Shown piece after piece: positions 29,855 to 44,340 of a stretch of 59,824 nucleotides of DNA. The stretch is taken from contig NZ_JAQOSO010000114.1 of assembly GCF_030068505.1 (NCBI RefSeq), forward strand, positions 1-59,824, given 5' to 3'. The DNA is from Roseofilum capinflatum BLCC-M114. Lineage in GTDB: Bacteria > Cyanobacteriota > Cyanobacteriia > Cyanobacteriales > Desertifilaceae. Below the pieces are notes generated by a model. The model was given only the letters and a program-made list of their open reading frames with translations. It had not been told where the DNA came from and did not search any database. The translations under genes and the position numbers were made by a program. Positions within the stretch are counted from its first letter, which is position 1. The number at the start of each line of letters is the position of its first letter.

Positions 29855-32722
29855 ATGCCTCAGCAGTCCATACCGAAACAAAGCGAAAAACAACTGGTTA
29901 CCCTAGGTCGGACTCTCCAAACCTTGAGGGAAGAGGAGAATCTTGATGTGTTGGTTGACACAACTCTTGAGTATATTGAAACGGAATTTGAATATGACTT
30001 AATCTGGATTGGTTTGTATGACCGGCGAGAGCATCGCTTATTTGGCAAAGGGGGAAATCTGCCGTCGGGAGGCGATCGCGCCATCCTCAAACAAACGTTT
30101 GCCTTAAGTCCTGGAGACTTGTTCGAGCAAGTGGTGATCCAGCAAAAACCGGCCGGGGTTCCCGACTTACGGGAAGAGCGACGGGCTGGCGAATGGCGGA
30201 AGTTAGCGGAAAAATTGAATATTCAAGGCACGATTATCTTTCCTCTGCGCTATCGGGCCCTGTGTTTTGGGGTGGTGATTTTGGGATCGACCCTGTGGGG
30301 AATTTCACCGCGATCGGATGAAAAGGCTCGCCTATCAATGATTTTTGGCGAACTGGCAGCCACATTAAATGAGATGGAAGCCAATTGGCGCAGGCAGTTG
30401 GCGAAACGGCCGGATAAACCCTTATTAGAATTATTGGATCAGTTGCGATCGCTCTCCGATTTTCGCCAAAGGTTAGATGTGGTGGTGGCCAAAACCCATG
30501 AATTTTTGACCCCGGATCGCACGAATATTTATTGGTTTGAGCGCGAACGCCGCTATTTTTGGCGCAGAACCACGAATGTTCAGAAAACCCAGGCCGGAAC
30601 CAATCAAGCCTCCTCTGGGATTACGGTACAGGAGGTGATTGGGTTTTATAAGGCTCTGGTAGCCGATCAGGTGGTCTCGGTGGGGGAAGCTCGCAGTTCT
30701 TTGAAGGCTGATACCACCAGTCGGTTAATGCAGCAAATTAAGGCTCGTTCCCTGTTGGCGGCTCCGATTATCTATCAGAATGAGTTACTAGGCTTTTTGG
30801 CGATCGAGGGCAATGAGCCTCGAATTTGGGAGGATGCCGAACGAAATTATGTGCGTGGAGTGGCTCAGTTAATTGCTCTGATGGCTCCCCTAGAAGCGAT
30901 GGAGGCCGCAGTAGAGCGCACCAAACAAGACCAGGCCCTGACGGCTGAGTTGGTGCGATCGATCTATTCTGAGGAGGATTGGCGACAGACTCTAGATCAT
31001 TGTGCCCATTTGGTGTGCGATCGCCTAGGGGTGGAGCGGTTTTTGGTGTTGCTCTACGATCGCGATAAGAATCATTTTGAGGTGGTCTGTCAAAGTCAAC
31101 CGGGTAACCGTCGTCCCCTACCTTCCCCCTTACCGGTTCCTGATGTGGATGAATGGCAGCAGCTTGAACAGTCGAGAGCAGCGATCTCGATTGAAAATTG
31201 GGAGGAAGATCAACAACTGATGACTTGGCGACCCCTATTTACCCAAGTCGGGATTAAGAGTGTTTTACTGTGTAATACGGCGATCGGCCATGAGATGGAA
31301 GGGGTGCTGATGGTTGGCCATGATGTGGCTCGCACCTGGGAAGGAACAGAACTGGAATTGGTGCGGGTGGTGGCTCAACAGTTGGGGTTGATCCTCCATC
31401 AATGGCAACTCCATAGCCGTCAACAACAACAGGAAAAACTACAATCTTTGATTCAATGGGGACAAACAGCGATTCAATCAACGGGCGATGAGTCCTCTGA
31501 AAGCCTAGAGGAAGAGGCTCTACGAAAAATCACCCAGGTCTTTAAGGTTCCCCTGGCGCTGAAAATTAGTTGGTCTTTGGATAAGCCTCAGATAGGCTAT
31601 ATTACGATGGCTCAGGTCAGTGGCCCAGAGTTTAATATACAGACTCAAGGCAAAATTGATATCGCCCACGATCCAGTGCTGCAAGAGGTTTTAGCCAGCT
31701 CAGGCGTGTATCAGGTTTCGGCTGAAGATCTGCCTGCTGTGACTCGTCAGTGGTTGACTGGATCGGGGATTGGGGAAATTGCGGCGATCGCCTTTCGGGG
31801 GGATGAACAGGAGATTGCCAGAGGAATTATTGTGTTAGCCGATGCTCCCGGCCGTTTGTGGTCCGATCGCTATCTGAGTGTGTTGACGATTATGGTACGA
31901 CAACTGGCTTGGTCTGAACGGAGGATGGAATTACAAACTCACTTTGAAGTCCAGCAGGATCGGGCCCAAAAGTTGACTTGGTATAAGCAACGTCGCAGCG
32001 AGATTATTTATCGCAAACTGAGTACAGAATTGAAAAAACTCCATAGTTTGGGTACGCCCAAGGATGCTCTCACTCTAACCCGTTATCAGCAAGGATTGCG
32101 ATCGCTCAATACCACCTTGAGTCATCTGGCGCAAATGCTCAGAGATGAGCAATGGGAATTAGAGTGGTATCAGATGGCTATGCCGTTAGTGAGTTTAATT
32201 AAACGGGCGATCGAACGGGTGGATACCTTGGTCAAAAAGCGGGAGTTATTTATCCGCGTGCAGGGACAACCTGGAGCCGTGAATTTAACCGGAGATGTGG
32301 TGAAGTTAGAGTTGATTTTCCACGAAATTTTAGGAATTACCTGCAAAATGGCCCAGCCGAAAGGACAAGTGGATATTTGGTGTAATGGGATTTCTGAGAC
32401 AGAATTGCCACCGGCTCAAGGGAGAATGCGAGAGCGTTTGCGCCAGAATTCCGATCGGTCGGGTAAAGGGCAACCTGTTTCATTGTTTGATGTCTCCATT
32501 GTTTGTGCCACCTTATTAGAACCGAACTTGATAGCTGAACTTGAGCAGGGGCGATCGCCCGATTTACTCAGTCCTTCTTTACTCGATCAGCCCCCTGGTC
32601 TATATTTGCTCATTTGCCAGTCCCTGATGCAAAGTTTAGGGGGTTATTTTAATACTTATCCCTTGGAAAATCACTCTGTGATGTTTCAGTTATTGCTACC
32701 GGTTGAATCGGCTCAAGATTGA
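29855..32722 (+). CDS. Multi-GAF sensory protein with degenerate kinase-like C-terminus
   Basis: A 955-aa soluble protein. At least three GAF-like modules can be placed, at about 20-185, 195-345 and 365-520, with a fourth, weaker one at about 540-690. The C-terminal 230 residues look like a histidine kinase that has lost its key parts. A helical region replaces HisKA, and an ATPase-like end (LIKRAIERVDTLVKKR to LPVESAQD) lacks clear N and G1 boxes. No phosphoacceptor His is evident. Bilin-binding cysteines cannot be assigned. A regulatory role by ligand binding is likely. Neighbours give no clue. Confidence 0.75.
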   Translation: MPQQSIPKQSEKQLVTLGRTLQTLREEENLDVLVDTTLEYIETEFEYDLIWIGLYDRREHRLFGKGGNLPSGGDRAILKQTFALSPGDLFEQVVIQQKPAGVPDLREERRAGEWRKLAEKLNIQGTIIFPLRYRALCFGVVILGSTLWGISPRSDEKARLSMIFGELAATLNEMEANWRRQLAKRPDKPLLELLDQLRSLSDFRQRLDVVVAKTHEFLTPDRTNIYWFERERRYFWRRTTNVQKTQAGTNQASSGITVQEVIGFYKALVADQVVSVGEARSSLKADTTSRLMQQIKARSLLAAPIIYQNELLGFLAIEGNEPRIWEDAERNYVRGVAQLIALMAPLEAMEAAVERTKQDQALTAELVRSIYSEEDWRQTLDHCAHLVCDRLGVERFLVLLYDRDKNHFEVVCQSQPGNRRPLPSPLPVPDVDEWQQLEQSRAAISIENWEEDQQLMTWRPLFTQVGIKSVLLCNTAIGHEMEGVLMVGHDVARTWEGTELELVRVVAQQLGLILHQWQLHSRQQQQEKLQSLIQWGQTAIQSTGDESSESLEEEALRKITQVFKVPLALKISWSLDKPQIGYITMAQVSGPEFNIQTQGKIDIAHDPVLQEVLASSGVYQVSAEDLPAVTRQWLTGSGIGEIAAIAFRGDEQEIARGIIVLADAPGRLWSDRYLSVLTIMVRQLAWSERRMELQTHFEVQQDRAQKLTWYKQRRSEIIYRKLSTELKKLHSLGTPKDALTLTRYQQGLRSLNTTLSHLAQMLRDEQWELEWYQMAMPLVSLIKRAIERVDTLVKKRELFIRVQGQPGAVNLTGDVVKLELIFHEILGITCKMAQPKGQVDIWCNGISETELPPAQGRMRERLRQNSDRSGKGQPVSLFDVSIVCATLLEPNLIAELEQGRSPDLLSPSLLDQPPGLYLLICQSLMQSLGGYFNTYPLENHSVMFQLLLPVESAQD

Positions 32723-33885
32723 GTCTTAACCCACTTTGGGCGGTACTTCCAGAGTAAACGTAGTAGTCGCAAGGGATAGTAGAGGAAAAATAACCCGGAG
32801 GGTAAAGGTAGTATTTCCCACTCTAGGGGGGTAGGAGTGGCTACATAGTCAAACCAGTACCAGAGGCGATCGCGGGGCGAATCCATCGTCTGTACATAAA
32901 TTTGTCCCATTAATCTCAGACTATTCCCCTCAGATGGAGAATTAAACCATTGCCCTTCTACTAATTTTCCTAACTCCTGAATCTTATGATTCTTTTCTAA
33001 TCTCTTCACCCAATCTTCAGGAACCGGAGCATCTAAATAGGTGTGGGCTAATCCTAAACCTAATTCTAACATCGTTTGGGTTCCCAAATGACCCACTTGC
33101 TGCTCAATCCACAACCAATCTAAATCTTGATATCGATGCAGCAATTCAGCAACATCACAAACCCAAGATAAATGAGACCAATCATGTTTAGCCCCATGAA
33201 CACATAAAAATAATAATAAAGCCTCTGGGGATAGAGTCAGAAGAGTTTGATTACCCAATTGCACTTGCTCTTGATAGGTTTTATCCTCCCAAATCTGTTG
33301 GGGTTGCTCGTGAAACGAGAGCGCAGAAGAAATCAACGACCAATGTAAATCAATACACATATCTTTTTCCGAAGAATAGAAATTATGCTCAAATCGAATT
33401 TGGGTATATCGCTTTTCTTGCCATCCCTTAAATTCAAACTGAGGCTGATAACCCTGTTCTCTTAAAGTTTGTGAAGCTTGACTTACCGCATCTTTAGGGA
33501 TTAAAATATCTAAATCTAAAAACTGCCTCAACCCCAGATTTTGATAAACAGTTTGGGCTAAAACTGGCCCCTTAAATGCCAAAACTGGAATCTTTTCCTT
33601 CTCAAAAATTTGGGTAATTTTAATCAGTTCTTGAGTAAGAGATAAGTTACGATAGGTGTTTTCCTTGAACTGTCGATGGATGAGTTGAAAAAAATCGGGA
33701 TTGACTCCATTTTTTAATTCTTTGATTGTCCAGTAAAATAGTGGAATTAAGCCATGATAGTTGATCCAATATAAAATATAACTCCAATCGAGATCTCTAG
33801 AGAGAAAATCTAAAATTTGATCTTGATTTTCACCTGAATGGTAAGTGCGAGCGCAGTTCAAAATTAATTGATGTTCTAGCCGCAT
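32713..33885 (-). CDS. Nucleotidyltransferase-family protein of the RiPP cluster
   Basis: A 390-aa member of the uncharacterised nucleotidyltransferase family NTP_transf_5. The core appears as PVLAFKGPVLAQTVYQNLG and LRQFLDLDILIPKD, with the acidic LDLDILI metal site. Members are often found with lasso-type peptide genes; in the pseudomycoidin cluster a related protein acts together with the peptide kinase. The ATG at 33885 is preceded by GGGAGAGG from an adjoining repeat. An upstream frame extension is repeat sequence. The gene is last in the minus-strand operon. Confidence 0.85.
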   Translation of the reverse strand: MRLEHQLILNCARTYHSGENQDQILDFLSRDLDWSYILYWINYHGLIPLFYWTIKELKNGVNPDFFQLIHRQFKENTYRNLSLTQELIKITQIFEKEKIPVLAFKGPVLAQTVYQNLGLRQFLDLDILIPKDAVSQASQTLREQGYQPQFEFKGWQEKRYTQIRFEHNFYSSEKDMCIDLHWSLISSALSFHEQPQQIWEDKTYQEQVQLGNQTLLTLSPEALLLFLCVHGAKHDWSHLSWVCDVAELLHRYQDLDWLWIEQQVGHLGTQTMLELGLGLAHTYLDAPVPEDWVKRLEKNHKIQELGKLVEGQWFNSPSEGNSLRLMGQIYVQTMDSPRDRLWYWFDYVATPTPLEWEILPLPSGLFFLYYPLRLLRLLWKYRPKWVKTQS

Positions 33886-33891
33886 AGTTAG

Positions 33892-33970
33892 TATCCTCTC
33901 CCTATATCTCTCTCCCACTGGGAGAGGAACTTCTGTTCCCTTCTCCCATGGGAGAAGCTGGTAGGGTGGG
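33892..33970 (+). repeat. Double-hairpin repeat, copy 2, inside the RiPP operon
   Basis: CTCTCCC-ACT-GGGAGAG and CTTCTCCC-AT-GGGAGAAG stems correspond to the copies at 511-580 and 40902-40982. It lies in the 137-bp gap between the ABC transporter stop and the nucleotidyltransferase start, the only sizeable gap in the lower part of the operon. Its edge supplies the Shine-Dalgarno-like purine run. Confidence 0.7.
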
Positions 33971-34022
33971 CAATGCCCACCTGACCAATTGACTTGAAAA
34001 AGTGCCAATTTCTGTATTACAA

Positions 34023-35837
34023 TTACCGATAATAGTGGGCTTGAGTATTAAAAAGTGTGGCATAAATTCCCGATTGTTCCATTAACTGTCTGTGACTGCC
34101 CGTTTCCACAATTTCACCCTCCTTCAAGACTAAAATTCGGTCAGCAAATTTAACCGTTGACAGACGATGACTAATGATGATAGAGGTTCTTTTTTGCGTC
34201 AGTTGATTCAACTGTTCTAAAATTTCAGCTTCCGCTTGCGGATCTAAGGCACTTGTAGGTTCATCTAAAATTAAAATCGGGTGATTTTGGCTTAGGAAAG
34301 AGCGGGCGATCGCCACTTTCTGCCATTCCCCAATACTCAGTTCTTCTCCATTAATAAATTGTTTCCCCAAAATGGTATCATATCCTTGGGGTAGTTTCGC
34401 AATGGTTTGGTCAATTTTCGCCCATTGAGCCGCTCGCTGAATCTGGGATAAATTGTCCCAGTTTTTAATATCTCCGATTCCAATATTCTCTTGCACCGTT
34501 AAATGATAATGGGCATAATCTTGAAAGACAATACTAATGTTTTTTCTCACTTCAGTGGGAGATAAATCTCGCAGATCAATGCCATCTAGACGAATACTGC
34601 CCGCCGTAGGATCGTAAAGGCGGCATAATAGTTTGATGAGCGTCGTTTTTCCGGCTCCATTTTCCCCCACAATGGCGATCGTTTCTCCCGGTTCAATAGT
34701 AAAATGAATATCTTCCAGGACAGATCGTTGGCTATGGGGATAGGAAAAACTCACCCGATCGAACTCTATTTTTCCTGGGATGGAAGCGGGCAAGGGGACA
34801 GGGTGAGGTGGTGAAATAATGGTGGGTTTTAAGTCGAGAAATTGGTAAAAGTTGGAGAGAAATAAACTATTTTCATACAAAGAAGCCAAATAACTTAAAC
34901 TTTCTCGCAGTAAGGTTTGCCCGCGCTGAAAGGCTTGATAGTACATTACCACCGAGCCAATGGTAATCGCGCCCATAATTGCCCGATCTGCCATCAGTGC
35001 AAAGGCGGTAAAAACGGCTAGGGTGGCGCTACTTTGGGTGATACTTTCGGCAAAGGAACGACGGGCAGATAGGGATATTCTTTGCTGACGAATGGCTTGA
35101 CGCAGGGTATTAAAGCGTCTGCCAAAGAGTTCTCCTAAGTCAAATAGGCGAATTTCTTTAGCATGATCGACTTGGGTGATTAAGGTACTGTAATAATGGG
35201 CCATGCGCTCTTGGGGAGTCCATTGTTGCCATTGCCGATAAAGCTGTTGGGAAAACTTGAGGCGAACGAGAAAAACGGGGATGGCAGCGATAATCAGGAT
35301 GAGGGCGATCGCCCAATCAAAGGAAAAGAGGAGTAATCCTATCCCAATTAAGGATAAACTGCTATTGCCTAATTGGATGAATCGGTTTACAATGACAGTT
35401 GGACGGTAAGCTGCCTCAGTCTGTGCCTGATGGAGAAAATCATAGTATTGGGCATTTTCGTAGTATTCTAAATCCACTTCAATGGACTTAGCATGAAGCA
35501 GATTTTGCACGTAGTCGGTGACGATTTGAGATTGCGCTTCACTCACCCATCCGGCTAAGGATCTCAGTCCATCGCCCAGAATTGCCACGAATGCAGCAAT
35601 GACAATCAGCAGGAGTACCGGTTGTAGGGAGGTTTCGGGAGTAGCAATGCCTTCGGTGATGCGATCGATGATTAACTTGGTGAGATAAAGAGAAACCAGG
35701 GGTAAAACCGATTGCAGAAACACCAAAACAAGGTTTGCCAGCGTGAGCTTAGGGGTACTCTCCCAAACCAATTGAACGGCTTTTCGGAGATAGAGCAACC
35801 GTTGCAAGCGGGAGGCGATCGCGGCGATCCTATTCAC
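34023..35837 (-). CDS. ABC transporter of the RiPP cluster (fused permease and ATPase)
   Basis: A 604-aa half-transporter, presumably working as a homodimer that exports the mature peptide. Six transmembrane helices occupy about residues 25-310. The ATPase domain has Walker A VGENGAGKTTLIKLL, a variant signature ELSIGEWQKVAIARSF instead of LSGGQ, Walker B ILILDEPTSALD and the switch IIISHRLS. There is no N-terminal C39 peptidase domain, so it cannot remove the leader. The GTG start overlaps the methyltransferase stop by eight bases. Confidence 0.93.
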   Translation of the reverse strand: MNRIAAIASRLQRLLYLRKAVQLVWESTPKLTLANLVLVFLQSVLPLVSLYLTKLIIDRITEGIATPETSLQPVLLLIVIAAFVAILGDGLRSLAGWVSEAQSQIVTDYVQNLLHAKSIEVDLEYYENAQYYDFLHQAQTEAAYRPTVIVNRFIQLGNSSLSLIGIGLLLFSFDWAIALILIIAAIPVFLVRLKFSQQLYRQWQQWTPQERMAHYYSTLITQVDHAKEIRLFDLGELFGRRFNTLRQAIRQQRISLSARRSFAESITQSSATLAVFTAFALMADRAIMGAITIGSVVMYYQAFQRGQTLLRESLSYLASLYENSLFLSNFYQFLDLKPTIISPPHPVPLPASIPGKIEFDRVSFSYPHSQRSVLEDIHFTIEPGETIAIVGENGAGKTTLIKLLCRLYDPTAGSIRLDGIDLRDLSPTEVRKNISIVFQDYAHYHLTVQENIGIGDIKNWDNLSQIQRAAQWAKIDQTIAKLPQGYDTILGKQFINGEELSIGEWQKVAIARSFLSQNHPILILDEPTSALDPQAEAEILEQLNQLTQKRTSIIISHRLSTVKFADRILVLKEGEIVETGSHRQLMEQSGIYATLFNTQAHYYR

Positions 35838-36978
35838 TGTACACTGTAGACAATTGTCCCACCCGTGTTAGAGCCTCTTTCGGACTAGAAAACACCTCCG
35901 GAAACTGCTCCATTAACCTTCCTGCAATCTCGCTCACCGATTGTCCTTGCCCCATAGCCTCTAAAACCACTTGCGCGATCTTACCATCTTGATTTAATTG
36001 CGGCACAAAATTTCCTGCCTGCTTCCGCAACTGTTGAGGAGCAAGGGATTCGGCAAAAAATGTAGACTGCTTAAACTGAGCCTTACACTGGCTTTCTTTC
36101 CCCTGCTCGAATACCTGAGTATCCCAACGGAAGATATAGCTACTGTTTACCAAGTTAGCTTGTAAATTCACAGAAATCGTATCGCCCAAACCTATCTCAA
36201 CCGGCTCTAAAAAGGGGAAAAACGCTGTCCCATAAATCAATTCTGGCATCCCTGGAGCCGTGGAAAACCCAACTTCCTCAATCAACGTAGCATCAAACCA
36301 TACACTCAACCCATAGCCTGTGCCACTGCGAGACGGTTCAAAGAGCATCTGATTTCCCACATTCGGATTCTCAAGGGTTCCATAATCCAAGGTTGCCCAA
36401 AGTTGCGGTTGCGCCAATAATTGAGACGGTGTTACCCAGCCTTTTCCCCAAACATTATTAACGATCTTTTTCGCCGCGTTCATATTAAAGTCATAGCAAT
36501 ATTTATCCCAAGGATCGTTAATTCTATTCCATAAATTCGGTGCTTCTACCACACTCACCCAAATTTTATCTTTTTGGGGAATTAACACCCCTCCAGGACG
36601 CAATAATCGCTTTCTCGCGTCAGCTAAAGAGCCAATATGTTGCTGAAATAAAGGTAAAATTCCCCGCAAGTCGGAGATAATGACATCGGCTAATTCGGGT
36701 AATTCTACTTGAGTAGATAAATCTTGAATAAACTCAATTTTATCGCTATACCCATTGGCAACTGCCGCTTGTTTTGCCACTTCGATCGCCGGATTGGTTT
36801 CAATGGCGTAGACTTTCTTGGCTCCGAATTGACAGGCAAGCAGGGCAAATATACCGGTTCCCGTGCCGATATCGAGGACAACACAACCGGGGGTAATGGA
36901 TTGTTTCAGAGCTTGCGTATAGGCTTCCATGCGGCCGCGATCGCCGATCATGGAGCCGTAACCCGATACACTATACAT
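35830..36978 (-). CDS. PRMT-like methyltransferase with C-terminal PqqD-like domain
   Basis: A 382-aa SAM-dependent methyltransferase. Residues 1-130 hold the class I fold with VLDIGTGTGIFALLA, the acidic YAIETNP and VIISDLRGILPL. Residues 130-310 resemble the beta-barrel of protein arginine methyltransferases. The last 60 residues (NFVPQLNQDGKIAQVVLEAM to the end) look like a PqqD-type winged helix, the fold that binds RiPP leaders. This suggests the enzyme recognises the precursor itself and methylates it, but that is inference. It overlaps both neighbours by eight bases, so it belongs to the operon. Confidence 0.82.
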   Translation of the reverse strand: MYSVSGYGSMIGDRGRMEAYTQALKQSITPGCVVLDIGTGTGIFALLACQFGAKKVYAIETNPAIEVAKQAAVANGYSDKIEFIQDLSTQVELPELADVIISDLRGILPLFQQHIGSLADARKRLLRPGGVLIPQKDKIWVSVVEAPNLWNRINDPWDKYCYDFNMNAAKKIVNNVWGKGWVTPSQLLAQPQLWATLDYGTLENPNVGNQMLFEPSRSGTGYGLSVWFDATLIEEVGFSTAPGMPELIYGTAFFPFLEPVEIGLGDTISVNLQANLVNSSYIFRWDTQVFEQGKESQCKAQFKQSTFFAESLAPQQLRKQAGNFVPQLNQDGKIAQVVLEAMGQGQSVSEIAGRLMEQFPEVFSSPKEALTRVGQLSTVYSE

Positions 36979-38005
36979 GGGATAAGTTCTCTAAAATCAC
37001 AGATGGAATGTTGAATAGATGCTCCGAGTCGGGGTGAGCATTCAGTTGATAAACCGGGACTTGATTGACGGTATGACTGAGAAAATGGAACTCCTGTTGG
37101 CGCATGGTTTTATCGAGGAGTACATTGGCATAGGTATTGGCAATCAGATCCATTAAGGCTTGACGTTTTGGCAGTTGGGCGATCGCTGGAATGGGAGAAG
37201 AATTGGTGCGATCGCCTAATATATAAATGCCAGCTAGAGGTAGGGGCGTATCCTGAAACTTGTACTTCTCTTGATTGAGGTCTAAATAGCTTTTATCCCA
37301 AGTGGGGTTAGTGGGAACCAGACGAGGAAGCGCATCGGGGTTGTTATAGAGGATCTCCACAGAAGAGGGCCAGAGTCTGAGTCGGGGATAAGCAGGTTGA
37401 ACCAGAATCTGGTTATCTGGCTCGACTAGAGCGACGATATCATCCGAAAGGATGGGATATCCGAGTTCAGCAAATGCAGCCGCAGTGGTGGATTTTCCTG
37501 CACCGGAACGACCGACGATGGCTATGGCGCGATCTCCGACGGCGATCGCGCTCGCATGAAGACAGGTCACCCCCCGCAGACGCAAAACCAGACCCATGAC
37601 TGGGCCGAGCAAATAGGTCGCAGTATCTTCCAATGTCAACTCTTCCGGCCAAGTCCCCCAGACTTCAGTTCCCTGACGGTCTATGATGAACTGAGTGCGA
37701 TCTATATAGGTCAACTGAAGATAGGCTTTTCCTAGTTCTTCCACTTTCCAAACGGGACAGCCAGCCTCAGTTACATAGGAACTTTCAGCCCAAATTGGTA
37801 AAGAAGCCTGTAATGTTTTGTTGAGCCAAAAAGGTTGACTCTTGAACCATACGGTAAGATCAACTTCTTTTAGGTGAGCTAAAGGCACTACACCAGGAAT
37901 ATGAAAATTGGCTTGAAGAAATAAGCCAAACGTAAAGTAAAAGGAGGACACTATTACCAGGGTAAACAAGAATAACTTGTTATATAACAAGCAAGTGAAA
38001 ATCAC
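36971..38005 (-). CDS. HPr-kinase-like peptide kinase of the RiPP cluster
   Basis: A 344-aa kinase of the HprK-like family found in lasso clusters such as paeninodin, where it phosphorylates the C-terminal Ser of the precursor. Walker A is GRSGAGKSTTAAAF, followed by ELGYPILSDDIVAL, which carries the catalytic Asp pair. The GTG start at 38005 overlaps the precursor stop (GTGA). It adds a hydrophobic stretch (residues 11-30) unusual for this family; a GTG at 37951 would give the usual start. The target is presumably the 62-aa peptide, whose follower has several Ser and Thr. Confidence 0.85.
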   Translation of the reverse strand: MIFTCLLYNKLFLFTLVIVSSFYFTFGLFLQANFHIPGVVPLAHLKEVDLTVWFKSQPFWLNKTLQASLPIWAESSYVTEAGCPVWKVEELGKAYLQLTYIDRTQFIIDRQGTEVWGTWPEELTLEDTATYLLGPVMGLVLRLRGVTCLHASAIAVGDRAIAIVGRSGAGKSTTAAAFAELGYPILSDDIVALVEPDNQILVQPAYPRLRLWPSSVEILYNNPDALPRLVPTNPTWDKSYLDLNQEKYKFQDTPLPLAGIYILGDRTNSSPIPAIAQLPKRQALMDLIANTYANVLLDKTMRQQEFHFLSHTVNQVPVYQLNAHPDSEHLFNIPSVILENLSHV

Positions 38006-38190
38006 ATATTGTAGCCAGTCTTAAATACTGCTAGAGTACACTTGCTATCTCCTCCTGCTGTTTGACCATGGTTATCACAGTTCTGGTCAGGACTAGAACT
38101 ATTTTGAGTTAACCGACTGATATCTCCATATATATTGAATATGGGATGGTTGTAGGATTTTTTGTTCATTTTTTTATGTTGTGAGTACAT
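38002..38190 (-). CDS. RiPP precursor peptide with lasso-type leader
   Basis: A 62-aa peptide between the cyclase and kinase genes. Its leader contains YNHPIFNIYGDISRLTQ. Tyr13, Pro16, Phe18, Gly22 and Thr28 match the spacing of the lasso leader motif YxxPxLxxxGxxxxxTx exactly, which puts the processing site after Gln29. The follower of 33 residues (NSSSPDQNCDNHGQ to TGYNM) has two Cys (38 and 51) and no Gly or acid at the usual core positions 1 and 7-9. GGAGG lies six bases before the ATG at 38190, which decides this start over the ATG at 38169. The start overlaps the cyclase end by 17 bp. Confidence 0.85.
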   Translation of the reverse strand: MYSQHKKMNKKSYNHPIFNIYGDISRLTQNSSSPDQNCDNHGQTAGGDSKCTLAVFKTGYNM

Positions 38191-40045
38191 TGTAAACCTC
38201 CGGTGTTGATTGGGAATTAACTGATGCTAACTGCTCTAACCAATAGTTAAGACTAATTGGACGAAGATCGACCCAAGCTTCACTGCTTTGAGCTGTCATT
38301 CCGCAAAGAGTTGGGATAGCTTTATGATTAATATACATAGATAACTGAGAAATTGGATTAAAATCGTCAATCCATCTCATTTCTGTCTGTTGTAATCTTA
38401 CATTCAGGGAATCACCTGTAGCAGGAGTTTTAGGACGACTACGAACAAATTCTGGCAGTTTGCCTTTCATAGATGCTCGGACAATCCCCTTAAACATCAC
38501 CCAGGGAATCACTGGAATACAGAATAAGAACTCGATTAAGCGCACATCAAAGTAAGGGTATCTTACTTCAATTGTTGAAAATGTCATACCTGAGTCGTTG
38601 CATTCAAAGAGGTAAGACCAAAATATCGCTTTGATTCCTTTATAGGCTTCAGGACGAAAGGGGTGTAAAAGCTCTCTTTTTCTATAGCTGTTTTCCCATC
38701 TAGATTTCAAGTCTAACTTCCTTTCAAAATCAGGACTGAGCCATACGGGATAAGAAGGTCTCCAGGCGGGAATTCCTAACCACTCTTTAATCCGAGCGCG
38801 TATTCCAGGTTGAGGAAAACGCCCATTAGCTTTCCAGTATTGGCACCATTGTGTCACAATTGAAAGAATCTCACCTCTTTTAAGCAGATATATTCCATAA
38901 TAGTAAGCACCTTGACAGTGAAAGACACCATCTCCACCTTCACCACTAAGAGCAACTCGGCTTCTGGGGGGTTCATATTCTTTGGGGTTACTTCGTACTA
39001 GAGATAGTAAAGCCGGTTCTGGCGCATAGTACCCTTCTATGTCTTCCCATCCTTTACACAACTCGAAGTCGTCGGCGACTTGGTAGTGGATGGGAATATC
39101 CAAATGTTGGGCGACTAAACCGGAGTAGTAGCGCTCTTCATCGGGAAGAAGACGGTCGAAGACAGTGGTGTAGGCTCTGAGGTCGTGGGAGGAGTAGGTT
39201 TCTGTGAGGAGTTCTTTGGCGATCGCCGTTACACTGGTAGAATCTAATCCGCCACTCATGTAAACTGCGACTTTATTGGTTCTCAGTCGATCGCCGACTG
39301 CTAACCGCATTAGTTCCAAAAACTGCTCTACATACTCTTCATCCCGCTTATACCGGATATAGCCATCCGTTGGCAATGTCCAGTATCTCTCCACCTTAAA
39401 GCTCTCTGGAGTCCAGATTAACCGATGGGCGGCAGGCAGGCGTTGGATATCGGCAAAGGCGCTGGTATCCACTTCCTGATTGTAGCCGAATAGCAAAAAG
39501 TCGGCGATCGCCAAATCATTGAGCTTGTCCGATACAGACGGATGCAATCTCACACAATTAAGCGTATTACTCAGCACGAACTCTTGGCCCAAATGAGCGT
39601 AGAAAAACGGTTTTACCCCAAAATGGTCTCTGGCGCAAAACAAACGCTGTTCTCGGCTATCCCAGATGGCGAAGGCGAAATCCCCGATCAGGCGATCCAG
39701 ACAATCGATACCCCAAACCAGATAGGCATGGAGGATCAGATTCGGATCGGGAGTCTCTGAAGTCACCGGTTCTCCTCGGTCTTGAAGACTTTGGATTAAC
39801 TCGCTGCGACCATCCACCCGTGCATCCGCTACAATCCAAACCCGTTGATCTACCGTTAGAGGTTGAGTTTCGTTCTCGGATTCATCAGTCGTTCGTAACA
39901 GGGTATGGCCAAACCCGACAGAACCCTCTGCCCAGATTCTCTGGACATCCGGCCCCCGGAAGGTCATATATCCGGTCATCCGTGCCAATAGTTCCCGGTC
40001 AACCGGGGCCTGATCAGCATTGACGATTCCTAAGATTCCGCTCAC
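38174..40045 (-). CDS. Asparagine-synthetase-like lasso cyclase
   Basis: A 623-aa AsnB homologue of the lasso-cyclase type, which activates an Asp or Glu side chain as AMP ester and closes a macrolactam. The N-terminal glutaminase domain begins MSGILGIVN. Cys2 of true AsnB is Ser here, so it is not a glutaminase, as expected for cyclases. The ATP pyrophosphatase loop is YMSGGLDSTSV. GAGGTGA six bases upstream supports the GTG at 40045 rather than the GTG at 40054. A promoter lies at 40115-40143. It opens the main operon. Confidence 0.9.
   Translation of the reverse strand: MSGILGIVNADQAPVDRELLARMTGYMTFRGPDVQRIWAEGSVGFGHTLLRTTDESENETQPLTVDQRVWIVADARVDGRSELIQSLQDRGEPVTSETPDPNLILHAYLVWGIDCLDRLIGDFAFAIWDSREQRLFCARDHFGVKPFFYAHLGQEFVLSNTLNCVRLHPSVSDKLNDLAIADFLLFGYNQEVDTSAFADIQRLPAAHRLIWTPESFKVERYWTLPTDGYIRYKRDEEYVEQFLELMRLAVGDRLRTNKVAVYMSGGLDSTSVTAIAKELLTETYSSHDLRAYTTVFDRLLPDEERYYSGLVAQHLDIPIHYQVADDFELCKGWEDIEGYYAPEPALLSLVRSNPKEYEPPRSRVALSGEGGDGVFHCQGAYYYGIYLLKRGEILSIVTQWCQYWKANGRFPQPGIRARIKEWLGIPAWRPSYPVWLSPDFERKLDLKSRWENSYRKRELLHPFRPEAYKGIKAIFWSYLFECNDSGMTFSTIEVRYPYFDVRLIEFLFCIPVIPWVMFKGIVRASMKGKLPEFVRSRPKTPATGDSLNVRLQQTEMRWIDDFNPISQLSMYINHKAIPTLCGMTAQSSEAWVDLRPISLNYWLEQLASVNSQSTPEVYNVLTT
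38197..38201 (-). promoter_or_regulatory. Ribosome-binding site of the precursor peptide
   Basis: GGAGG on the minus strand ends six bases before the ATG at 38190, inside the end of the cyclase gene. It is stronger than the sites of the other cluster genes, as expected for a peptide needed in excess. Confidence 0.75.
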
Positions 40046-40054
40046 TCTGTTCAC

Positions 40055-40256
40055 CTCGATATGGTGTTTAGACGGAGTAATGGGTATTTTACCCTGGTTG
40101 CTTAAAACGAGCTGATTATACTCTACCTTAAGCTAAACTGCAAACCCCTTGGGCTTGTTTATTTTCCAGTGTACTATAGCACAACTGAAGGGTTCACCCG
40201 ACTCATTTTAATTTAACCTTAAAAAGAAATTTTCCGATCGCTCCCTGAAACCCCTG
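40055..40256. other. Intergenic gap with the cyclase promoter
   Basis: The gap separates the PqqD-like gene from the cyclase. It is AT-rich and holds the promoter described next. No small gene was recognised in it. Confidence 0.5.
40115..40143 (-). promoter_or_regulatory. Promoter of the RiPP operon
   Basis: On the minus strand TTGCAG (40143-40138), 17 bp, TATAAT (40120-40115). The -10 box is perfect and the spacing ideal. It should drive the cyclase, precursor and downstream tailoring genes independently of the PqqD-like gene. Confidence 0.65.
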
Positions 40257-40547
40257 TTAAGCTGGATTCACGGTAACCAAGCCCTGATCGACCATTTTTT
40301 CAATCAGTTCGAGCAAATCCTGGTGCAGTTTGTCCGGCTCTACCTCATACTCTTCTAATAGGCGATCGCTCGCCTCTTGAATTGAAGCAGAATCCGTCAA
40401 CACGGATAACATGCGCGAACCCACCTCATCTAAACCGAAGTATTCCTCACTCTTTAAGTTGAGTAATACCGATTCTCCAGAGAGTTCCTGAACCAGGACA
40501 TCTGGAGCTAAAGTGATGTTGTGTTGGTTAGAAATAGGGACTTTCAC
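40257..40547 (-). CDS. PqqD-like RiPP recognition protein (lasso B1 type)
   Basis: A 96-aa PqqD-family winged helix, the leader-binding partner of RiPP enzymes. The pattern VLNLKSEEYFGLDEVGSRMLSVL and the C-terminal helix pair (LHQDLLELIEKMVDQGLV) are typical. In lasso systems B1 delivers the precursor to the B2 protease and cyclase. Here no B2 is visible. The GTG at 40547 follows an overlapping GAGG. It is the upstream-most gene of the cluster, separated from the cyclase by 200 bp. Confidence 0.88.
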   Translation of the reverse strand: MKVPISNQHNITLAPDVLVQELSGESVLLNLKSEEYFGLDEVGSRMLSVLTDSASIQEASDRLLEEYEVEPDKLHQDLLELIEKMVDQGLVTVNPA

Positions 40548-43113: not shown

Positions 43114-44340
43114 CTAACAACGAAGTTTCGGTTGAATCAGTAAACGAAAATCATTTAAGACACTTTTCCAACCCCCAGAGTCATGCCACTGTTCAGATAG
43201 AAAAGAATCAACCTTGGCTCGATTACTGTCTGAATCCTGGGACTCTAAACGATTTAATGACAAAAAAGGTTGACTCTTCAAGCTAATCATGAGACAAGCA
43301 CTCATGATGAGTTCCCACCATTTTTCAATCTGAGAAAATTGAGTTAATCGATAATTCGTCCAGCCTAATTCTTGTTTACATTCTCTAACTCTAGAGTCTC
43401 CCCAATTTTTTAAGGAATAAAGGTTGCCAACAATCTTTTTCATCGAGTTTTTTTCTGCTTGAATATTTGTTGTTAGCCAAGAAGTTGAGCGATCGGGAAA
43501 GGTTTTAGGATCTGTCGTTATTTCCCAATAAGTTTTTCCACTGCGGCTACCCAAAACAATTTGTCTAATATAGCCCTCTTCTGATGCTCGATTGTCCATA
43601 AATGTCGATAATTTATACCATTTATTTTCCCTAACCTTTTGATCGCTTGGCATCAGAACTGTACGATCGCTTCGAGTTGACAAAACATAGGATAAGTTAT
43701 ATTCTTCTAGTTTTTCCACCAATGTATGATCTTCTTTGTCCCAAGTATCTGCCAAGACTAATTCAATCTTAAAGCCATAATCTATCAGTTCGCTAATTAT
43801 CTCTGAAGCAATTTCACTCTTACTTCTGTAAATATCTCCTTCCTTTAATTTCCCTTCAGGCTTAAATACTTGACATAGGAGCGGAAAGGTTATACCTTTA
43901 TAAATTCCATAAGCATTGATTGAAACCATTCCTCGATCGACTTTTTCCAAACTTTCTAAGTATTGTTTGGCTACATAATCTGTTTTGTCTCCTTTTTTTT
44001 GATCCCCTATTTCATTCACGATTACAGTGATTTCTTCCCCGCTTAATGCTTCCAAGGTTTTCCTTAATCTTCGATCTTTTAAGTCTGTGACAGACCAAGG
44101 AGAATTCGCAATAAAATGATGTAATGATTGAGAAGAATTGATTCCCACTGCTTTGGCTATTTCTGGGAAAGATTTTCTCTTGATTGGTGAGATAATGCCT
44201 AGATGTAAGTATTTAAAATATTCATAACTTCTCACTTCACCAAAAATCTCTTGATAACTTTCACAATATTCATCGACAACCGAAACGGTTGGTTCCGGAT
44301 CTCGCGGCAAATGTTTTAAGATCTGTAACTCTACATCCAT
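43114..44340 (-). CDS. IS701-family transposase, probably inactive
   Basis: A 408-aa DDE transposase. Signatures include EIGDQKKGDKTDYVAKQYL, GMVSINAYGI, LKEGDIYRSKSEIA and VLADTWDKEDH (second Asp). IS701 members known to me have a D-D/E-T-G motif at the first catalytic Asp; here it reads VNEIGD, with Asn (AAT) where GAT would be expected. That single change should abolish catalysis. The frame is otherwise complete, so the loss may be recent. It lies between flv3 and the Tudor-knot gene. Confidence 0.82.
   Translation of the reverse strand: MDVELQILKHLPRDPEPTVSVVDEYCESYQEIFGEVRSYEYFKYLHLGIISPIKRKSFPEIAKAVGINSSQSLHHFIANSPWSVTDLKDRRLRKTLEALSGEEITVIVNEIGDQKKGDKTDYVAKQYLESLEKVDRGMVSINAYGIYKGITFPLLCQVFKPEGKLKEGDIYRSKSEIASEIISELIDYGFKIELVLADTWDKEDHTLVEKLEEYNLSYVLSTRSDRTVLMPSDQKVRENKWYKLSTFMDNRASEEGYIRQIVLGSRSGKTYWEITTDPKTFPDRSTSWLTTNIQAEKNSMKKIVGNLYSLKNWGDSRVRECKQELGWTNYRLTQFSQIEKWWELIMSACLMISLKSQPFLSLNRLESQDSDSNRAKVDSFLSEQWHDSGGWKSVLNDFRLLIQPKLRC

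What the first reader, a model, noticed from the sequence alone, without database searches (positions are those of the whole stretch)
38002..38190. Precursor with perfect lasso leader spacing but a non-lasso follower
Tyr13, Pro16, Phe18, Gly22 and Thr28 match YxxPxLxxxGxxxxxTx position for position, placing the cut after Gln29. The next residue is Asn, and positions 7-9 are Gln, Asn, Cys, so no standard macrolactam forms there. A ring could start elsewhere: Ser31 to Asp39 (nine residues) or Gly42 to Asp48 (seven residues, GQTAGGD). Two Cys could form a disulfide. The product may be a new class using lasso machinery.
Basis: partly seen in the sequence, partly recalled or inferred. Interest (0 to 1): 0.9.

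Follow-up and report, generated by a model that had tools for sequence, protein, structure and literature searches.

The report
Lasso-type precursor, possible ten-residue ring
This small cyanobacterial gene encodes the raw material for a knotted "lasso" peptide whose ring is probably one residue larger than any natural one characterised so far, and whose leader-cutting enzyme appears to be encoded elsewhere in the genome.

Summary
The ORF (38190-38002, minus strand) and its lasso-type leader are real. It follows a lasso cyclase gene, overlaps it by 17 bp, has a GGAGG ribosome site, and is present in 6 of 6 genomes held for this genus (Roseofilum). It is not a new peptide class. Related precursors carry a conserved acceptor Asp: of 56 distinct cores from selected loci, position 9 in 36, 10 in 13, 8 in 4, elsewhere in 3 (one of these a probable chance ORF). 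In the window it is Asp39, position 10 if the cut follows Gln29. Pooled over 12 position-10 cores an extra residue inside the ring fits better; the window's own core leans slightly the other way. Natural rings characterised so far have 7-9 residues; ten is known from engineered fusilassin. The Gly42-Asp48 ring is rejected. The cluster lacks the B2 leader peptidase; an orphan B2 elsewhere occurs in 6 of 6 congeners, and one congener has exactly one cyclase and one B2 detected. A Cys pair shared with one congener allows a ring-tail disulfide. No product has been observed.

The parts
38002..38190 (-). lasso-type precursor gene (A), 62 aa; leader residues 1-29, core 30-62
   Evidence: orthologues in 6 of 6 genus genomes
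38074..38103 (-). predicted ring Asn30-Asp39 (10 residues); alternative Ser31-Asp39 (9 residues) starts at 38100
   Evidence: Asp39-Asn40 invariant in 6 of 6 genus precursors; comparison of D9 and D10 cores
38174..40054 (-). asparagine-synthetase-like lasso cyclase (C); SGGLDS ATP motif present, no Cys in the first 30 residues
   Evidence: PF00733 E 1.1e-26, PF13537; NF033535 371 bits, below its cut-off of 525; motif check
40257..40547 (-). PqqD-type leader-binding protein (B1/RRE)
   Evidence: PF05402 E 4.1e-15; lasso_PqqD NF033536 E 1.5e-14, 53.9 bits, below its cut-off of 80
40055..40256 (.). 202-bp gap where many relatives carry the B2 peptidase; no credible B2 remnant
   Evidence: gene maps; tblastn of the gap, best E 0.008 over 12 residues on the opposite strand
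36971..38005 (-). HprK-like kinase (K) with the His-Lys-Asp-Asp residues; the true start may lie further in, as genus relatives align from about residue 10-23
   Evidence: TIGR04352 E 1.1e-10, PF07475 E 1.3e-5, both below cut-off; start of matches; H 76/76, K 76/76, D 73/76, D 75/76 in an alignment that contains near-duplicates
35830..36978 (-). PrmA/PRMT-like methyltransferase (MT)
   Evidence: PF06325 E 1.4e-12; PRMT_C E 7.9e-6, 26.3 bits, just below its cut-off of 27
34023..35837 (-). MsbA-type ABC exporter (D)
   Evidence: PF00005, PF00664; TIGR02203 323 bits, below its cut-off of 602
32713..34008 (-). nucleotidyltransferase-like protein (NT), PF14907
   Evidence: E 5.3e-63

Best explanation
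38002-38190 encodes the precursor of a lasso peptide made by a B1-C-A-K-MT-D-NT cluster. The RRE (B1) binds the YxxPxFxxxG leader, and a B2 cysteine peptidase encoded elsewhere in the genome cuts the leader near Thr28-Gln29. The cyclase then adenylates Asp39 and joins it to the new N-terminus around the tail. The most likely cut is after Gln29, giving a ten-residue ring (Asn30-Asp39), followed by Asn40 and the loop and tail HGQTAGGDSKCTLAVFKTGYNM. In this species and one congener, Cys38 in the ring and Cys51 in the tail could form a class-III-like disulfide. K probably phosphorylates the conserved Thr of the C-terminal Lys/Arg-Thr, NT may elaborate the phosphate, and D exports the product. Shown: gene, cluster, conservation, Asp position, B2 co-occurrence. 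Inferred: every chemical step, threading, the cut site, the disulfide and the B2 partnership.
For: Cluster content. Asp39-Asn40 invariant in 6 of 6 genus precursors, whereas Asp35 and Asp48 are not. Asp/Glu at core position 9 in 36 of 56 distinct cores, 10 in 13, 8 in 4, elsewhere in 3. All D10 leaders counted keep the canonical spacing to Thr, although the search pattern required this; a looser search of 16 loci added one precursor with other spacing, L053. An extra residue inside the ring fits the D10 set better than one at its N-terminus: summed log-odds +16.8 over 12 cores, 8 positive; simulated N-terminal insertions gave mean -14.1, sd 5.1, 0 of 400 as high. The within-genus DNA alignment places the D9/D10 indel inside the ring. 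On the cyclase tree D10 needs 5 changes, at least 3 forced by well-supported branches. Orphan B2: 6 of 6 genus genomes, 0 of 4 other family genomes, same pattern as K. R. halophilum has one cyclase match (E <= 1e-40) and one PF13471 match (E <= 0.01), the orphan. The orphans sit beside the in-cluster B2 of Cyanosarcina in a tree (SH-aLRT 90). Kinase motif complete. [KR][TS] in the last nine residues of 44 of 55 cores.
Against: The window's own core leans towards a nine-residue ring (-1.2), and 4 of 12 cores are negative, most clearly Argonema L009 at -2.95. Simulated internal insertions give +36.1 (sd 9.3), more than seen (2.5% as low), so the set may be mixed. No characterised natural lasso ring exceeds nine residues (PMC13352647). 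No B2 in the cluster; the genus-wide B2 pattern may be one evolutionary event, and in G001, G004 and G005 a second cyclase locus could also use the orphan. NF033528 and NF033535 matches are below cut-off. The C-terminal Ser that lasso kinases are reported to modify is absent. No product observed.
Confidence: 0.5

Rival explanations
1. Same lasso pathway, but the peptidase cuts one residue later, after Asn30 (Thr at -3), giving an ordinary nine-residue ring Ser31-Asp39.
For: Keeps the known ring size. Position 2 is Ser in 6 and Asn in 2 of 13 D10 cores, both found at position 1 of D9 cores. The window core scores -1.2 and L009 -2.95 in this direction.
Against: D10 leaders keep the canonical spacing to Thr, though the search pattern required it. 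Some D10 cores would then begin with Ile, Val or Leu, not seen at position 1 of the 36 D9 cores (Ile and Val do occur there in more distant clusters). Summed score +16.8 against it over 12 cores. The DNA alignment puts the indel inside the ring.
Confidence: 0.33
2. The product is a non-lasso RiPP: leader removed and core phosphorylated or methylated without macrolactam formation, as in the LPP family, which shares RRE, HprK kinase, NTP transferase and exporter.
For: LPP-type clusters exist (PMC13381572, passages), and cyanobacterial clusters with this RRE and kinase but no adjacent cyclase were found here (L129-L131).
Against: A cyclase with an open frame lies next to the precursor in 6 of 6 genus genomes, with the ATP motif in the window, and the ring Asp is conserved.
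Confidence: 0.08
3. The cluster is decaying, and the lost B2 means no product is made.
For: B2 is absent from the cluster; the kinase of G003 has one in-frame stop.
Against: Precursor, cyclase, K, MT, D and NT frames are open in the window; 6 of 6 congeners keep precursor, cyclase, kinase locus and orphan B2.
Confidence: 0.07

Closest known systems
Paeninodin / pseudomycoidin-type lasso clusters (kinase, plus nucleotidyltransferase in pseudomycoidin)
   Same: split B1, cyclase, HprK-like kinase with H-K-D-D, NT-type protein, exporter (family facts from PMC9266682 passages and recall)
   Different: conserved Lys/Arg-Thr near the C-terminus rather than a C-terminal Ser; extra PRMT-like methyltransferase; B2 not in the cluster
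Fusilassin (fuscanodin) ten-residue-ring analogue
   Same: ten-residue macrolactam accepted by a lasso cyclase (PMC8498205, PMC13352647, passages)
   Different: engineered variant of a nine-residue ring; here the position is encoded naturally in several lineages
Class III lasso peptides (BI-32169, 9401-LP1)
   Same: one Cys in the ring and one in the tail
   Different: disulfide only inferred; only 2 of 6 genus precursors have the Cys pair
NCBIfam lasso_cyano (NF033528) and lass_lactam_cya (NF033535)
   Same: leader and cyclase give their best NCBIfam matches to these models
   Different: both matches lie below the curated cut-offs; the cyclase is 30-32% identical to the Nostoc, Calothrix, Fischerella and similar relatives L056, L059, L060, L064, L070, L078-L080
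LPP family RiPPs
   Same: RRE, HprK kinase, NTP transferase and MsbA-like exporter shared
   Different: the core gene set given in PMC13381572 (passages) has a signal-peptidase-like SpI and no cyclase or B2

Membership tests
Lasso peptide | short precursor with YxxPxLxxxGxxxxxTx leader beside the processing genes | tested here: met
Lasso peptide | RRE (B1) | tested here: met
   PF05402 E 4.1e-15
Lasso peptide | transglutaminase-like leader peptidase (B2) | tested here: inconclusive
   absent from the cluster; orphan PF13471 protein elsewhere with matching distribution; partnership not shown
Lasso peptide | asparagine-synthetase-like cyclase | tested here: met
Lasso peptide | Asp/Glu at core position 7-9 | tested here: inconclusive
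   not met with the Thr-2 boundary (Asp at 10); met if the cut is one residue later; position 9 in 36 of 56 related cores
Lasso peptide | threaded macrolactam product | not testable with these tools
   needs mass spectrometry or NMR
Class III lasso peptide | one ring-tail disulfide | not testable with these tools
   Cys38 and Cys51 suitably placed; also in G002
Paeninodin-type phosphorylated lasso | conserved C-terminal Ser | tested here: not met
   core ends KTGYNM; Thr conserved instead
Paeninodin-type phosphorylated lasso | kinase His-Lys-Asp-Asp motif | tested here: met

The most novel reading that the evidence does not exclude
Ten-residue-ring lasso peptides occur naturally: the window's precursor and other position-10 precursors from Cyanobacteria, Acidobacteriota and Gammaproteobacteria keep the Thr-2 cut and carry one extra ring residue, so the ring size limit of nine is a sampling artefact. 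In this genus the maturation also relies on a peptidase encoded away from the cluster.
Probability: 0.45. Interest if true: 0.65.

Novelty: new variant of a known kind. Interest (0 to 1): 0.5.

Why it matters
If the ring has ten residues, the natural size range of lasso peptides is wider than thought, and mining tools that demand an acidic residue at positions 7-9 would miss such precursors (inference). The displaced B2 gene would also hide such clusters from mining rules that look for B2 beside the cyclase (inference). A published study of nine Roseofilum genomes reported lasso clusters only in the four from one coral host (PMC9967302, passages); those genomes were not examined here, but 6 of 6 genus genomes held have this cluster.

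Tried and rejected
Gly42-Asp48 ring: neither residue is conserved in the genus. Asp35 as acceptor: not conserved. Strict G/A/S/C at position 1: contradicted by relatives. B2 remnant in the B1-C gap: best tblastn E 0.008 over 12 residues on the opposite strand, taken as chance. B2 loss as a mark of this genus alone: B2 was also not detected in 16 other loci, 19 of 79 in all, 9 of the 19 with a B1 match; contig ends and divergence explain an unknown share. RRE-like C-terminus on the methyltransferase: hhalign probability 5.5% (a first attempt failed). Lys/Arg-Thr tied to the methyltransferase: it also occurs where no MT match was found, for example L014, L018, L024, L027, L029 and L030. Literature for a natural ring above nine residues: one search returned no paper, five and twelve of 29 listed; these were seen as listings only, except one passage of PMC8498205, which concerns an engineered analogue. 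PDB sequence searches placed the cyclase near a hydroxyamidotransferase and asparagine synthetases and the kinase weakly near HprK, adding little. No structure prediction or fold search was run.

Rows dropped before counts: the 56 distinct cores come from selected loci (L004-L055, nine others, and the window); loci L056-L082, mainly more distant cyanobacterial clusters, and the cores without early Asp/Glu of L102-L106 were not in it. One of the 56 (an L031 frame starting DGLQ) is probably a chance ORF. Of 16 loci without a strict match or complete core, one search gave a clear new precursor only in L053 and a truncated one in L016. One search used 55 cores (the chance ORF left out). One search used 34 of 36 D9 cores (L025 with Glu9 and one near-duplicate of L038 left out) and 12 of 13 D10 cores (L087, near-duplicate of L006, left out). 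The cyclase tree used 42 of 43 proteins (L048 too short).

Full report
The observation. The minus-strand ORF 38190-38002 encodes MYSQHKKMNKKSYNHPIFNIYGDISRLTQNSSSPDQNCDNHGQTAGGDSKCTLAVFKTGYNM. The pattern alone is weak evidence (one hit in the window, mean 0.175 in 40 simulated windows). But the ORF starts inside the end of the cyclase gene, has GGAGG upstream of its ATG, hits the cyanobacterial lasso leader model below its cut-off (residues 10-30), and has orthologues at the same place in 6 of 6 genus genomes.

The cluster. On the minus strand it runs RRE (B1), cyclase (C), precursor (A), HprK-like kinase (K), PrmA/PRMT-like methyltransferase (MT), ABC exporter (D), PF14907 protein (NT). Of 79 loci found with the cyclase, 64 have a B1 match, 60 a B2, 72 a K, 27 an MT and 33 an NT match. 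The order B1-B2-C-A-K-MT occurs in Phormidium, Argonema, Cyanosarcina, an Acidobacteria locus (L010) and others, often followed by D and NT. The window and the Roseofilum-group loci L004-L006 lack B2 between B1 and C. The window belongs to this genus by identity: flavodiiron protein, B1 and ABC exporter are each 98% identical to R. acuticapitatum.

The missing peptidase. The window's genome has two PF13471 proteins above the cut-off: one inside a second lasso-type cluster on contig C36, one an orphan on C11. The orphan has relatives in 6 of 6 genus genomes and 0 of 4 other genomes of the family, the same pattern as the window's kinase; this may be a single evolutionary event. None of the six lies beside the cluster by its place. 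In R. halophilum one cyclase match and one PF13471 match, the orphan, were found; this is the strongest hint that they work together. In G395 the orphan is also the only PF13471 match, but that genome has a second cyclase locus (L033; seen as G005), as have G001 and G004, which could use it too. In a quick tree of 77 B2 proteins the six orphans group together (99) and next to the in-cluster B2 of Cyanosarcina (SH-aLRT 90). I infer that B2 moved away from the cluster in this genus and still serves it. B2 was also not detected in 16 other loci of the 79, so displacement or loss may be more common.

The acceptor residue. In 56 distinct cores from selected relatives, counted from the Thr-2 boundary, Asp/Glu lies at 9 in 36, at 10 in 13, at 8 in 4 and elsewhere in 3, one of which is a probable chance ORF. 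In the genus, Asp followed by Asn is invariant in 6 of 6; it is at 10 in five and at 9 in R. halophilum. In the window this is Asp39.

Ring of ten or of nine. Either the cut is after Gln29 and the ring has ten residues, or the cut is one residue later and the ring has nine. Three observations favour ten for the set. (i) D10 leaders keep the canonical spacing to Thr, although the search pattern required it, and with a later cut some D10 cores would start with Ile, Val or Leu, which none of the 36 D9 cores does; Ile and Val do start D9 cores in more distant clusters, so this is weak. (ii) A profile of 34 D9 cores scores 12 D10 cores better with the extra residue inside the ring (sum +16.8, 8 of 12 positive); N-terminal insertions simulated on D9 cores gave -14.1 (sd 5.1), 0 of 400 reaching +16.8. 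Internal insertions gave +36.1 (sd 9.3), so the observed value is low for that model too (2.5% as low) and the set may be mixed. (iii) The DNA alignment of the six genus genes puts the gap inside the ring. Against: the window's own core scores -1.2 and Argonema -2.95. On the cyclase tree (42 proteins) the D10 state needs 5 changes, at least 3 on well-supported branches. Natural rings structurally characterised so far have 7, 8 or 9 residues (PMC13352647, passages and part 1 of section 15); a ten-residue ring is reported for an engineered fusilassin analogue (PMC13352647 and PMC8498205, passages). Searches, seen as listings, showed no natural example.

Tailoring. The kinase keeps the His-Lys-Asp-Asp residues that lasso kinases need according to PMC9266682 (passages). 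Reported lasso kinases modify a C-terminal Ser; here a Lys/Arg-Thr/Ser pair lies within the last nine residues of 44 of 55 cores, so I infer Thr as target. In pseudomycoidin an NT-type protein is needed for hexose addition to the phosphorylated Ser (PMC9266682). The role of the methyltransferase is open. Cys38 and Cys51 are shared with G002 only (2 of 6); a similar Cys-Asp-Asn with a later Cys appears in the Acidobacteria locus L028. A ring-tail disulfide would make these class III (PMC9266682, PMC13352647, passages).

Verdict. A lasso-type precursor and cluster, not a new peptide class; a new variant because of the probable ten-residue ring and the displaced B2. The chemistry is untested.

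Noticed in passing
L129-L131 (G038, G109, G135; same order as the window): Clusters with an RRE 54-57% identical to the window's B1, HprK-like kinase, B2, ABC exporter, NT and glycosyltransferases (Pfam checked in L129 only) but no cyclase match in 18 kb; tandem precursors with lasso-like leader YSEPELKAHGKISGLT and cores such as QVGGSGGFGTT without an early Asp/Glu. Cyclase-like matches exist elsewhere in 6 of 6 such genomes, over the model's cut-off in 2.
   Followed up: partly
L001 (G000:C36): A second lasso-type cluster (K, B1, B2, C) in the window's own genome.
   Followed up: partly
G001:C36, G004:C80, G005:C161 (L091, L089, L090; L033): A further cyclase-kinase-precursor locus, cyclase 43-44% identical to the window's; no B1 or B2 match in the 13.7 kb of L033. 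The G004 cyclase match contains two stops.
   Followed up: partly
L097 (G002:C12): In this congener the orphan B2 sits beside a second PqqD-type RRE, 52% identical to the window's B1.
   Followed up: no
L088 (G003:C146): The kinase gene of this congener has one in-frame TAA, and its precursor is the only Asp-9 one among the six genus precursors.
   Followed up: no
L092, L094-L096: The orphan B2 lies directly after a small nucleotidyltransferase/HEPN-like gene pair in 4 of 6 genus genomes (label from recall, judged from sequence); in L093 the contig begins just upstream.
   Followed up: no
L081 (Moorena): Five lasso-type precursors in one locus whose cores start with Val or Ile and have Asp at 9.
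   Followed up: no
window 43114-44340: Transposase-like ORF upstream of the cluster beyond the flavodiiron gene (my labels from recall; no family search made).
   Followed up: no
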